Part shown: in pieces, positions 9,966-53,057 of the stretch
Numbering within the stretch: the stretch's first letter is position 1
Layout of the letters: each line of letters starts with the position of its first letter
NCBI RefSeq assembly: GCF_009729055.1
Contig: NZ_CP045484.1
Location: 434,001 to 498,000, forward strand
Direction: 5' to 3'
From: Sulfurisphaera ohwakuensis
GTDB taxonomy: Archaea > Thermoproteota > Thermoprotei_A > Sulfolobales > Sulfolobaceae
Length of the DNA: 64,000 nt
Position numbers and translations under genes: made by a program
The notes under the pieces: model-generated
What the model was told of the DNA's origin: nothing
Database searches by the model: none
What the model saw: only the letters and a program-made list of their open reading frames with translations

Positions 9966-9982
9966 TAAAAAAGAAAAAGAAT
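9966..9982 (-). terminator. T-rich terminator after box C/D sRNA
   Basis: Directly after the D box, the minus strand runs into a tract of mostly T (ATTCTTTTTCTTTTTT). This fits archaeal termination. It would end both the ABC transporter transcript and the sRNA. Confidence 0.5.
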
Positions 9983-10030
9983 TCAGTGCTCGCGCATTTC
10001 ATCACACTCAGTTCCCGGATTCCACATCAT
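9983..10030 (-). ncRNA. Box C/D guide sRNA overlapping the ABC permease stop
   Basis: On the minus strand a complete C/D layout is visible. C box ATGATGT is at 10030-10024, a 12-nt guide GGAATCCGGGAA follows, and D' box CTGA is at 10011-10008. C' box TGATGA is at 10004-9999, then a second 12-nt guide AATGCGCGAGCA, then D box CTGA at 9986-9983. Such RNAs bind L7Ae, Nop5 and fibrillarin and direct 2'-O-methylation at the fifth base from each D box. The TGA in the C box is the stop codon of the upstream permease gene. I could not place the two guides on an rRNA from memory. Confidence 0.85.
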
Positions 10031-11658
10031 GCGAGATAAATTCCCTCTTCTGCAATATATTTCTTTCTCGCCAAATCCATTAATTTTCTAGTAAATAAAA
10101 TTGAATAAACCGCTACTATTATACCAAAAATCAGAGAGACCCATGATGCTAAAACAATGTTTCCTTCATTTGTAGCTACATCAATTAATTTCATCATTCC
10201 CGTATGAACCTCTAGATTGTAATTCTGTATTATGTCTGGCCAATATTCTCCTATTGCTAATCCTCCCCAAGCACTGTTTATAGTACTAGATAACCCCGCA
10301 ATGATATAAGGAAATGTCCCCGGTATAATTACATATCTAAGTTTTTGCCAGAATTTGAAATCATAGTTTTTCATTATCTCCCAATATTGTTGTGGAAGGT
10401 TCTTAACACCTATCCAAAAACTATAAAATACATAGTAAAAAGTAGATATAAAACCAAGAAACAAGACATAAAATTCGTTAGTAAATGGTCCAAAAACTGA
10501 ATGTATAAATGGTAGTGTAACTAAAAGGAAAAGCGGATAATATGCTGGGGCTGGAATAGCTGAATATGCTTGAATAATCGGAATCACAATTTTTTCAGTT
10601 CTCTCGTGAAAAGCAAGATAGTAACCAACGAATATCGCAAAAACGAAAGAAAGCAAAGCAATGATTCCAACTCTTATATAATCAAATAATATAGCTATTA
10701 AATCAGACGGTAATGTGGAAATTAAGTAACCCCAGGTTGAAAGAGGTACAGAAATAATTGTTGATATCGCACCATATAAGATAAGACCCAAAAGCATGAC
10801 TCCTACTATAATTCCACTTATCTTCCAGAAATATTTATGTTCTTTTTCCTCTTCTTCTTCAATATTAGATCTTAGTTTTATAGGTGTTGGGAAAACTTTT
10901 GCTAATTTAGCTGGATAAGATAGAGCACTAACTAATCTTGTAGAGTAACCAAAATGAATTCTTCCTCTTTTTCTAATAGAGATTTCAGTATCTAAACCAT
11001 ATCTTTCTACACTATATTTTGAAAATTCTCTGAGTAGTAAAGTAATTGCTATAGTAAATATAGCCAAAACTGCTATTCCATATAATGCGTCCGTATATTC
11101 TCCTTCGCTTACTAAATTAGCTATAACAGTTCCAATACCAAACACTTGATAAGTATGTGTTCCTACAGCGAACACTTCGCTAACAGTTATATAAAATAAG
11201 GCGTCAGCGAAACTTGGAATTAAATTTGCTGCAATTCTGGGTATAGAAAATGGAATATATAACTTATTCATAGTTCCCCAAAATTTAAGTCTGTAATTTT
11301 CAGAAACCTCCAATAGATCTTCTGGCACGGTTTTGAATGCTTGATACTCACCCATCCAAATATTCCAGGTAACAGCAGTAAAAACAAGAAATAAGACAGC
11401 AAATTCTACTCCTAAACTTCCACCTATATCATATATAAAGAATATTAAAACTATAGGAAAGAAACTAAATACTGGAACAGATTCAAAAACTTCGATTAAA
11501 CTAATATAAATATTTTCAAATATTTTATTTTTTATACTAGCGTATGCTAAAAACCACCCAGAAAATATAGAGAATAATATAGTAACCCAAACCCTTCCAA
11601 TAGTTACTAAAGAAGCCAAAATGAAAGTAATTAAAAGTGGAATATTCATATAACTCAT
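10027..11658 (-). CDS. ABC transporter permease with duplicated membrane domain
   Basis: A 543-residue protein with two repeats of about six membrane helices. Each repeat contains an EAA-type cytoplasmic loop: PEDLLEVSENY...IPFSIPRIAANLIPS in the first, PQQYWEIMKNYDFKFW...IIPGTFPYIIAG in the second. A charged linker (EEEEEKEHK) sits between them. The pattern matches duplicated permeases of the nitrate/sulfonate/bicarbonate class (COG4986). The substrate is unknown, and no binding-protein gene lies next to it. The ATG overlaps the ATPase stop by 4 nt. Confidence 0.88.
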   Translation of the reverse strand: MSYMNIPLLITFILASLVTIGRVWVTILFSIFSGWFLAYASIKNKIFENIYISLIEVFESVPVFSFFPIVLIFFIYDIGGSLGVEFAVLFLVFTAVTWNIWMGEYQAFKTVPEDLLEVSENYRLKFWGTMNKLYIPFSIPRIAANLIPSFADALFYITVSEVFAVGTHTYQVFGIGTVIANLVSEGEYTDALYGIAVLAIFTIAITLLLREFSKYSVERYGLDTEISIRKRGRIHFGYSTRLVSALSYPAKLAKVFPTPIKLRSNIEEEEEKEHKYFWKISGIIVGVMLLGLILYGAISTIISVPLSTWGYLISTLPSDLIAILFDYIRVGIIALLSFVFAIFVGYYLAFHERTEKIVIPIIQAYSAIPAPAYYPLFLLVTLPFIHSVFGPFTNEFYVLFLGFISTFYYVFYSFWIGVKNLPQQYWEIMKNYDFKFWQKLRYVIIPGTFPYIIAGLSSTINSAWGGLAIGEYWPDIIQNYNLEVHTGMMKLIDVATNEGNIVLASWVSLIFGIIVAVYSILFTRKLMDLARKKYIAEEGIYLA

Positions 11659-32965: not shown

Positions 32966-33286
32966 ATGAGACTATCAGAGCAATACATAAAAAATGCTTT
33001 ATCCTTAAGCTTAGAGATGCTTAGTAAGAATGATGGAACTATTGCCGCTAGGGTATGGGAAAACGTTATAAAGGCTATAGTAGCTTTTGCACAAGAGAAG
33101 AGTGGAAAAGATGTTTTAGCTTATGCTTTAGCTTTTGCCTCTTTTCAGTCCGAGTTTAAAGCTGGAGATTATATACCTATAATAAAGGAAACATTAAAGG
33201 TAGCTGAAAAAATTGGAATAGAAGATAAAGAGACAAAAGAGTTATACGATAAGGTTAAAGGTCAGTTAAGTCAAAGGTCTTCATAA
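32966..33286 (+). CDS. Hypothetical helical protein (possibly HEPN/PaREP1-like)
   Basis: 106 residues, all helical, starting MRLSEQYIKNALSLSLEML and containing VWENVIKAIVAFAQEKSGK. The layout (short helices, an A-x-x-WEN-x-IKA motif) resembles small HEPN or PaREP1 proteins, but the match is loose. The ATG is about 28 bp after a TATA (GAATATTTAACC). The 3' end overlaps a candidate box C/D RNA on the other strand. Confidence 0.6.
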   Translation: MRLSEQYIKNALSLSLEMLSKNDGTIAARVWENVIKAIVAFAQEKSGKDVLAYALAFASFQSEFKAGDYIPIIKETLKVAEKIGIEDKETKELYDKVKGQLSQRSS

Positions 33287-33311
33287 GATCCGTGGGTTCT
33301 GACCTCATCAC
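33262..33311 (-). ncRNA. Candidate box C/D sRNA overlapping a stop codon
   Basis: Minus strand: C box GTGATGA (33311-33305), a G/C-rich guide-like stretch ending in AACCCACGGAT, weak D' CTTA, C' TGAAGA (33283-33278), 12 nt, then D box CTGA (33265-33262). A TATA-like TAATTATAG about 26 bp upstream fits transcription from the C box. The C box contains the TGA stop of the upstream ATPase-like gene. The D' box is poor and no rRNA target is recognised, so this is tentative. Confidence 0.4.
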
Positions 33312-45170: not shown

Positions 45171-45218
45171 GTGATGATAAAAAATAAGCAGATTTATGAA
45201 GAGCGGTGTAGGGTCTGA
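45171..45218 (+). ncRNA. Box C/D sRNA at the 3' end of sir2
   Basis: C box GTGATGA (45171-45177) directly after the MTHFR-like stop; D'-like CAGA (45189-45192); C' ATGAAGA (45196-45202); a 12-nt guide GCGGTGTAGGGT (45203-45214); D CTGA (45215-45218). A TATA-like CTTTAAACA about 26 bp upstream predicts transcription from the C box. The guide overlaps the last sir2 codons in antisense. No rRNA target is recognised from memory. Confidence 0.6.
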
Positions 45219-45974: not shown

Positions 45975-46021
45975 ATGATGAGTTTGCCGAGTACGGAAAG
46001 ATGAAGAAAAATATTATCTGA
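45975..46021 (+). ncRNA. Candidate box C/D sRNA upstream of sir2
   Basis: C box ATGATGA (45975-45981); guide GTTTGCCGAGTA (45982-45993); degenerate D' CGGA (45994-45997); C' ATGAAGA (46001-46007); AT-only spacer; D CTGA (46018-46021). The G/C-rich guide stands out in an AT-rich gap. Ten of its bases pair with ACUCGGCAAA, a segment I recall from bacterial 23S rRNA, though the archaeal version may differ. No clear TATA was seen. Confidence 0.5.
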
Positions 46022-50031: not shown

Positions 50032-51231
50032 GTGAATACAAATGATATAGTAATTTTGACACTCCTTGAACTTTCTATTTTACTTACAGCCTCTCAAACA
50101 GTTAGATTACTGACACAAAGATATTATTTACCATCGATCTTCGCTGAGTTGATAGTTGGTATAATTCTTAGTCCCTATGCTATAGGTGGGATTATAAATG
50201 GAATATTTAAGGTAAATCTATTTGATATAAATTCCTATTTGACATTATTTGCTAACTTCTCAGTTATTTTGCTAATTTTTGCCGCGGGTTTGTCACATGG
50301 TTATAAAAATTTGAAATCTTCTGGGTTTCTCGGTTTTCTAGCAGCAACATTCGGTGCAGTTATACCAACGATTTTAGTTTATTTTACCTTTAGTGTAATT
50401 TATCCTTCCCAAGTTTCTGCATTAATGGGTGCTGCTAGTGCTGCTACAAGCTTAGCCGCTACTTCGTCAATAATAGAAGATTTCAAATTATATAGAAGAA
50501 ATTTCGCTAGAATAGTTATATCAGCGGCAGCAATAGATGATGTAGTCTCCTTAATAATTCTGTCTGTTGTACTAGAAATATTAAGTATAAAAATTCTATC
50601 ATTCGTAACTATTTTCTATAATATTTCATTAACTATAATTTCCTGGGTAATAATTCTATTTCTATCAGTAATCATAATTCCACGAATTTTAAAATACATA
50701 AGAGATGACCTAGTTAACGATGTATCTTTAGTTATCCTCTTTTTGGTCGTTTTCTTAATGATTTTACTGGGATTTGAACCAATTATAGCTGCTTTTATAG
50801 TTGGTATAGCTATAGCTGAAAGCGTCAAATCATCAAGAATAACGTCTTTCACTTCTTCCCTTTTAGCAATTTTCGGTCCAGTATTCTTTATTTATGTTGG
50901 AATGGAAACACCAATATCTATATTTATAAACGTTGGTGACGTACTATTAGGTCTTCTTATGACATTTCTAGCGATAATAGGTAAAATCGCAGGCATATTT
51001 CCTTTCGCCTTTCTTTATACGAAGGATCTTAAGGAGTCGTTTCTAGCGTCTGTAGGTATGTTACCAAGAGGAGAAGTAGGATTAATTATCGCCACATTAG
51101 GTTTATCTTCTGCAATACTTGACGTCAATCAATTCTCTCAAGTTGTAATCATGGCTTTACTTACTACATTAATAGGCGGTTCACTTTTCTCTTATCTTGT
51201 GAGAAAATGGATTTTAGAGCGTTCAGCTTAA
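50032..51231 (+). CDS. Cation:proton antiporter (CPA2 / Kef-NapA type)
   Basis: About 399 residues with 12-13 membrane helices. The RYYLPSIFAELIVGIILSPYAIGG start, the GAASAATSLAATSSIIEDF discontinuous helix and the AIDDVVSLIILS motif with its paired acidic residues are the CPA2 core. GMLPRGEVGLIIATLG is the usual late motif. It exchanges Na+ or K+ for protons. GTG 50032 is preferred over TTG 50023 because of the TATA spacing. Confidence 0.9.
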   Translation: MNTNDIVILTLLELSILLTASQTVRLLTQRYYLPSIFAELIVGIILSPYAIGGIINGIFKVNLFDINSYLTLFANFSVILLIFAAGLSHGYKNLKSSGFLGFLAATFGAVIPTILVYFTFSVIYPSQVSALMGAASAATSLAATSSIIEDFKLYRRNFARIVISAAAIDDVVSLIILSVVLEILSIKILSFVTIFYNISLTIISWVIILFLSVIIIPRILKYIRDDLVNDVSLVILFLVVFLMILLGFEPIIAAFIVGIAIAESVKSSRITSFTSSLLAIFGPVFFIYVGMETPISIFINVGDVLLGLLMTFLAIIGKIAGIFPFAFLYTKDLKESFLASVGMLPRGEVGLIIATLGLSSAILDVNQFSQVVIMALLTTLIGGSLFSYLVRKWILERSA

Positions 51232-51271
51232 AGGAATTTCTTCACCACTCAGTTACGGTCGCACACATCAC
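51223..51271 (-). ncRNA. Box C/D guide sRNA targeting conserved 16S rRNA
   Basis: Minus strand: C box GTGATGT (51271-51265), guide GTGCGACCGTAA (51264-51253), D' CTGA (51252-51249), C' GTGGTGA (51248-51242), guide AGAAATTCCTTTAAG (51241-51227), D CTGA (51226-51223). The second guide pairs over 12 bases with CUUAAAGGAAUU, present in essentially all archaeal 16S rRNAs; the predicted methylated base is the A at position 5 of that match. A TATA (CTTTTATAGTC, 51301-51291) lies about 26 bp before the C box, so the gene has its own promoter. Confidence 0.92.
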
Positions 51272-51290: not shown

Positions 51291-51301
51291 GACTATAAAA
51301 G
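51291..51301 (-). promoter_or_regulatory. TATA promoter of the box C/D sRNA
   Basis: CTTTTATAGTC on the minus strand; predicted RNA start at about 51270, matching the C box. Confidence 0.6.
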
Positions 51302-51305
51302 AATA

Positions 51306-53057
51306 ATGATCGCATGCACAAGGGACTGTTATGATACTTGTATATTTGATTCTAATTATAAACCTTTGAACATTTTTCCGATAAATGGTTTTACTTGTTC
51401 TAGGGGAATTACTGATTTAAAAAGAAATGAAATTAACAGAGTGGACTCAGCCTACATTGAAGGTAAACCGGTTTCCATAGATGAAGCAGTGAAGTACGTA
51501 GTAAAAAAGATAAAAGAAATTAAAAGGGAAGAAATTCTTCATGTTGACTATGATGGAAATCAAGGGCTATTAACATGGTATTATCCAGCAAGATTTTGGA
51601 ATGCAATTGGCTCAGCATCTACTGATTATTCAATTTGCTCTGCTGAAGGTCACGAAGCTATTAAGCTCCATTATGGTACTTCTTTTGGTGCGTTACCAGA
51701 AGATTTTGCTAAGTATAATGCTGTAGTCTTTTGGGGATCAGAAGCTATTTTCTCTTTTATTCATGGATGGAGAATTCTGTCTAAGAAGTACAAGATAACA
51801 ATTGATGTAAGAATGAGCGAAACTGCAAAAAGAAGTGAAAAGGCATATATTATAAATCCAGGTTCGGACGCATTTTTAGCAATTGGAATTATTAAAACGT
51901 TATTTTATGAAGGTCTTTATGATTCTTCATTAATTGACGATATAGAAACCCTTAAGAATTATGTAAATTCTTATGATTTCTCTTTAATAGAAGAAGTTAC
52001 TGGTTTATCTCAGGAAGAAATTGAAGAGTTAGCTGAACTTTATTACTATTACAAACCCTTAACAATAATTGGTTTCGCTTTAGGAAGAACATATAATGGT
52101 GGTGATGCTATCTCATTAATTTCTTTGATTCCCGCTTTATTGGGCATGAAGAGAGGCTTCTTCTACTCAAACAGTCAAGGATGGGGAATAGACTTTTCTT
52201 ATCTCCGTGGTCTACATATAGCAAAACCTAGCAGGATTATAGGTATGGCTGAAGTAGGGAAAGAGGTCGAAAAAGGTAATATAAAGCTTCTATTTAATTG
52301 GAATTCCAATCCTATTCATTCTTTGCCAGGAAGTGATAAAATAAAAGAAGCTGTAGAAGAAGGAAAGCTATTTTTAGTTTCTCATGATCCTTTTTGGAAT
52401 GAGACAACAAAAATAGCAAATGTTGTTATTCCAGCACCAACTTTTTTAGAAAAGTATGATGTAGTATATAGTTATTGGCATAACTATCTTGTTTACAACG
52501 AGCCTATTAGACCACAAAGAGGGATTACTGAAGTTGAATTAATGAAAAAACTTGCCAAAGAATACGGTATTATTTCCCATCCTCTCATTGAGGAAAACGA
52601 ATGGAGTGCTGTAAATAACGCAATAAGAGGTACTGGGGTTTCTTTACAAGAATTAAAAGACAAGAAGATAGTTAAAATGAATAAGACTATTGAAGTTAAC
52701 AAAGTTAAAGTCGAGCCTTTACCCAAACTAACTTCTCCTCCTAAGGGAATTTACTTGGTCTTCTCTTCACATCCTAATCATACAAACTCCCAGTTTAAGG
52801 AAATATATTCTCAGATGCCTATAGCATATAATAATCAATTTGATGGTATAGGTTACCTAGAAAATTCTAATGGTAAAGTTAAGGTACTTCTGAAAAGAGA
52901 TGAGAACATACCTAACAACGTAGTTTTCATGTTTAAGAGCTCCCTAATTGGATTAGATGATAAGCCAGTCAACTCACTTATTGGTAGTGAAAAAGGAAAA
53001 TACGGAGGAACTCCATTACTTAACGGGTATACTGTTAATATTAGATTAATAAAATAA
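51306..53057 (+). CDS. Molybdopterin oxidoreductase (DMSO reductase family)
   Basis: 583 residues. An N-terminal 4Fe-4S site is formed by C4, C8, C12 and C31. The likely Mo/W ligand is C111 in [23 protein letters not shown] and the [24 protein letters not shown] block are usual in this family. No twin-arginine signal is visible, so it is probably cytoplasmic. The substrate (formate, polysulfide, other) is unknown and no partner subunit lies next to it. A TATA (AAGTTTTAATATG) fits a leaderless ATG. Confidence 0.9.

What the first reader, a model, noticed from the sequence alone, without database searches (positions are those of the whole stretch)
51223..51271. Box C/D sRNA whose guide matches universal 16S rRNA, with its own promoter
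All four boxes, two guides and a TATA at the right distance are visible. One guide is complementary over 12 bases to CUUAAAGGAAUU, the conserved segment near E. coli 16S position 910. The D' guide GTGCGACCGTAA has no target I recognise. The gene lies antisense across the end of an antiporter gene and so is easily missed by gene callers.
Basis: partly seen in the sequence, partly recalled or inferred. Interest (0 to 1): 0.75.

Follow-up and report, generated by a model that had tools for sequence, protein, structure and literature searches.

The report
Archaeal guide RNA for 16S rRNA
This is a real small guide RNA gene in a Sulfolobus-like archaeon that most likely steers ribose methylation of two neighbouring spots in the ribosome's small-subunit RNA; it is a good new example of a well-known RNA class rather than a surprise.

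Summary
The finding holds up. At 51271..51223 (minus strand) lies a 49-nt box C/D sRNA core with C, D', C' and D boxes. A strict C/D pattern finds 0.06 such cores per random window of the same composition; none of 150 random windows had both guides matching rRNA, as this one does. The same 49-nt RNA occurs once per genome in 18 of 31 genomes of the family, in 5 genera. Boxes and guide cores are nearly invariant, spacers and flanks vary, and neighbouring genes differ. A TATA-like box sits 30-36 nt upstream of the C box in most homologs, so the RNA most likely has its own promoter.

The D guide pairs with 16S C910-U921 (12 bp, +5 nucleotide A914). It is therefore a double guide spanning helix 27. 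It overlaps the last 9 bp (stop codon included) of an Na+/H+ antiporter gene, antisense; in two genera the overlapped gene is a Na+/Ca2+ exchanger instead.

It is a new member of a known kind. The S. acidocaldarius ortholog may already be catalogued, but I could not check. Expression and methylation are untested.

The parts
51223..51271 (-). box C/D sRNA core, 49 nt
   Evidence: boxes by sequence; 18 homologs of identical length with conserved boxes and guides
51265..51271 (-). C box GTGATGT
   Evidence: sequence; TGA core and the G at column 6 invariant in the 15-sequence alignment
51254..51263 (-). D' guide TGCGACCGTA, pairs with 16S U891-A900 (E. coli numbering); predicted Gm894
   Evidence: 10 contiguous WC pairs to same-genus 16S
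51249..51252 (-). D' box CTGA
   Evidence: sequence; GA invariant
51240..51245 (-). C' box GTGAAG
   Evidence: sequence; TGA invariant
51227..51238 (-). D guide AATTCCTTTAAG, pairs with 16S C910-U921; predicted Am914
   Evidence: 12 contiguous WC pairs to same-genus 16S
51223..51226 (-). D box CTGA
   Evidence: sequence; CTGA in 14 of the 15 aligned homologs, CAGA in G012
51295..51301 (-). TATA-box-like CTTTTAT, 30 nt upstream of the C box
   Evidence: TATA-like heptamer at conserved distance in homologs; 0 of 2000 shuffles reach the observed score
50023..51231 (+). Na+/H+ antiporter gene whose last 9 bp (incl. stop) overlap the sRNA in antisense
   Evidence: ORF, PF00999 E=9.2e-45
51306..53057 (+). 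molybdopterin oxidoreductase gene, divergent from the sRNA
   Evidence: ORF, PF00384 E=1.9e-14

Best explanation
A double-guide archaeal box C/D sRNA, transcribed from its own TATA promoter. It assembles with L7Ae, Nop5 and fibrillarin and directs 2'-O-methylation of 16S rRNA at G894 (D' guide) and A914 (D guide), E. coli numbering, during ribosome assembly. The two targets are 20 nt apart and lie on either side of the helix 27 hairpin, so simultaneous pairing would hold that helix open until release (inferred). Shown: sequence architecture, guide-target complementarity, conservation, promoter-like element, presence of fibrillarin and Nop genes. Inferred: transcription, RNP assembly, methylation, chaperone effect.
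For: Boxes and geometry. Several Rfam archaeal C/D models align over the full core below their cut-offs, the best being sR9 with E=0.0016. Complementarity of 10 and 12 bp to 16S, with no hit of 8 bp or more in 23S. Random expectation far lower. 18 homologs in 5 genera, one strong copy per genome, core always 49 nt, invariant columns being the boxes and guide cores. TATA-like element at -36 to -30. Conserved even where neighbouring genes differ. Fibrillarin (E=2.2e-105) and Nop (E=9.3e-81) genes in the genome, adjacent to each other. Helix 27 is part of a reported archaeal 2'-O-methylation hotspot (PMC4644070).
Against: No expression or methylation data. The C' box is weak. The own-genome 16S is masked, so targets were read from a congener. 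In G025 the D' target carries a mismatch (UACGGCCGC against GCGACCGUA). No strong match to the family model in 13 of 31 genomes of the family.
Confidence: 0.93

Rival explanations
1. A cis-antisense RNA that regulates the antiporter mRNA by pairing with its 3' end.
For: It is antisense to the antiporter stop codon and 3' flank.
Against: The RNA is conserved in genera where the overlapped gene is a Na+/Ca2+ exchanger (g7, g11) or where no gene's stop lies within it (g8). Overlap is only 9 bp of coding sequence. Boxes and rRNA guides are what is conserved.
Confidence: 0.03
2. A genuine C/D sRNA in which only the D guide is active; the D' duplex acts as an anchor or chaperone without methylating G894.
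For: D' complementarity is shorter (9-10 bp) and mismatched in G025; guide-target interactions predicted to be unproductive for methylation are described (PMC4644070).
Against: The 9-nt D' guide core is invariant in all 15 aligned homologs and pairs correctly at the +5 position.
Confidence: 0.2
3. Chance resemblance or coding-sequence constraint.
For: The D box and part of the D guide encode the last codons and stop of the antiporter.
Against: Random expectation; conservation in g8 where no ORF stop lies in the sRNA; invariance of D' guide and C box core outside coding sequence.
Confidence: 0.01

Closest known systems
Archaeal double-guide box C/D sRNAs (S. acidocaldarius, Pyrobaculum and others; PMC4644070)
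   Same: C/D'/C'/D architecture, about 50-nt core, N+5 rule, two guides to sites within 100 nt of rRNA, helix 27 within a hotspot region
   Different: this guide pair could not be matched to a listed sRNA because the paper's supplements were not readable here
Rfam sR9 (RF01312), sR5, sR28, snoPyro_CD
   Same: boxes align over the full length, 19-26 bits
   Different: below gathering scores (36-45 bits), guides unrelated
C/D sRNAs overlapping the 3' end of a gene and carrying its stop codon (reviewed in PMC7994747)
   Same: stop codon of a neighbouring gene lies inside the sRNA
   Different: here the overlap is antisense, the stop lies in the D guide, and the sRNA appears to have its own promoter

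Membership tests
archaeal box C/D sRNA | C (RUGAUGA) and D (CUGA) boxes at the ends, D' and C' inside | tested here: met
   GTGATGT, CTGA, GTGAAG, CTGA; TGA/GA cores conserved in homologs
archaeal box C/D sRNA | guide of at least 9 nt complementary to rRNA/tRNA upstream of D or D', Watson-Crick pair at +5 | tested here: met
   12 bp (D) and 10 bp (D') to 16S, +5 at A914 and G894
archaeal box C/D sRNA | fibrillarin and Nop5 present in the genome | tested here: met
   L7Ae not searched
archaeal box C/D sRNA | expressed 50-60 nt RNA bound by L7Ae/Nop5/fibrillarin | not testable with these tools
   needs RNA-seq or RIP-seq
archaeal box C/D sRNA | 2'-O-methyl at the predicted nucleotides | not testable with these tools
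   needs primer extension, RiboMethSeq or mass spectrometry
Rfam sR9 / snoPyro_CD | score above gathering threshold | tested here: not met
   26.0 against 36 and 21.7 against 45 bits

The most novel reading that the evidence does not exclude
A conserved Sulfolobaceae sRNA whose two guides simultaneously unfold 16S helix 27 and so act mainly as a folding chaperone for the decoding-site neighbourhood; weaker candidate sRNAs in other families of the order may also target the helix 27 region with different guide pairings.
Probability: 0.35. Interest if true: 0.4.

Novelty: new member of a known kind. Interest (0 to 1): 0.25.

Why it matters
It adds a well-supported rRNA modification guide, conserved across five genera and absent from Rfam. 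It predicts two testable methyl sites around the functionally sensitive helix 27, and shows an sRNA gene overlapping the 3' ends of different transporter genes in different genera.

Tried and rejected
Rfam at gathering score: no hit for the locus or 10 homologous loci. Direct use of the window genome's own 16S: masked; same-genus G028 used instead. Sequence-string search of the literature for the guides: no relevant paper. Database-wide pattern search: 49 hits, of which only Sulfolobus sp. UBA167 is in the family; my rough estimate for this pattern is some 80 matches by chance, so I take the rest as chance, and near relatives may be left out of that scan. Alternative 23S targets: none with 8 bp or more. 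tRNA targets were not searched. Cis-antisense regulation of the antiporter: argued against by gene turnover next to the sRNA. Weak model hits in other families (L110-L118): L110, L111, L112, L114 and L118 look like C/D sRNAs for the helix 27 region, but were compared only with a Sulfolobaceae 16S, not with their own.

Full report
Observation. The minus strand at 51271..51223 reads GTGATGT GTGCGACCGTAA CTGA GTG GTGAAG AAATTCCTTTAAG CTGA. This is the order C box, guide, D', C', guide, D box of an archaeal box C/D sRNA. The finding's coordinates are exact. A strict C/D pattern finds 5 candidate cores in the window against 0.06 on average in 150 Markov-1 random windows; only this one has both guides matching rRNA by 9 nt or more, and no random window had one. 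Rfam C/D models (sR9, snoPyro_CD, sR5, sR28) align to the core below their gathering scores.

Targets. The window genome's own 16S is masked, so I used the 16S and 23S of same-genus genome G028. The D guide pairs over 12 contiguous bases with C910-U921, and the +5 nucleotide is A914. Neither guide has an 8-bp match in 23S. E. coli numbers were assigned by anchoring C910 from my own knowledge of the 907/915 primer sites. The two sites lie 20 nt apart on either side of helix 27, the usual layout of a double guide (PMC4644070). Helix 27 belongs to the reported hotspot of predicted 16S methylation (PMC4644070).

Conservation. A DNA search found homologs in congeners and other genera. A sequence model of the core found strong matches (43 bits or more) in 18 of the 31 genomes of the family, in five genera, one per genome. 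The core is always 49 nt; in the 15-sequence alignment the columns GCGACCGTA and ATTCCTTTAA and the box cores are invariant, while spacer columns vary. Two further, more diverged copies (G023, G024) differ slightly in the guides. G023 has the genome length I recall for S. acidocaldarius DSM 639, and G030 that of S. tokodaii (identifications by length, not by name). In the G023 ortholog the guides keep the same +5 targets. In G025 the 16S D' site has changed, leaving one mismatch.

Context. In the window's genus and in g10 the sRNA overlaps, in antisense, the last 9 bp of an antiporter gene (Na+/H+ exchanger by Pfam in the window); in g7 and g11 a different gene, a Na+/Ca2+ exchanger by Pfam in the two examples scanned, ends at the same place; in g8 no stop codon of a long ORF lies within it. 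So the RNA, not the neighbour, is what is kept. A TATA-like heptamer lies 30-36 nt upstream of the C box in most homologs; the band score exceeds all 2000 dinucleotide shuffles. This fits an independent promoter; only about 20% of the C/D sRNA genes in a six-species study show a TATA-like motif upstream (PMC7994747). The heptamer scoring scheme was my own simple consensus.

Mechanism. Fibrillarin and Nop genes are present and adjacent. The most likely function is guided 2'-O-methylation of 16S G894 and A914, perhaps with a chaperone effect on helix 27. Expression, RNP assembly and methylation are inferred from the family, not shown.

Novelty. The RNA is a new member of a known kind, not in Rfam. 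S. acidocaldarius has 61-62 C/D sRNAs by RNA-seq (PMC4644070, PMC5539422); its ortholog may well be among them, but supplementary tables could not be opened, so 'already catalogued in a relative' remains possible.

Noticed in passing
9981..10034 (-): A second C/D sRNA, Rfam sR33 (64.3 bits).
   Followed up: partly
45171..45218 (+): C/D-like candidate; D guide has 10 bp to 23S, 1-nt offset from the D box.
   Followed up: partly
45975..46021 (+): C/D-like candidate; D' guide has 10 bp to 23S, D' box CGGA.
   Followed up: partly
33262..33311 (-): C/D-like candidate; D' guide has 10 bp to 23S and D guide 8 bp to 16S.
   Followed up: partly
L118 1501-1532 and flanks (G225): A different sRNA-like element in another family whose guides match 16S 884-892 and 911-921, again on both sides of helix 27, with a shifted predicted site A915; compared with G028 16S only.
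   Followed up: partly
L110, L111, L112, L114: C/D-like RNAs in another family of the order with a related D' guide (GCGGYCGTA-like) but a different D guide resembling the complement of 16S AAGCCCGC near 873: possible guide reshuffling.
   Followed up: partly
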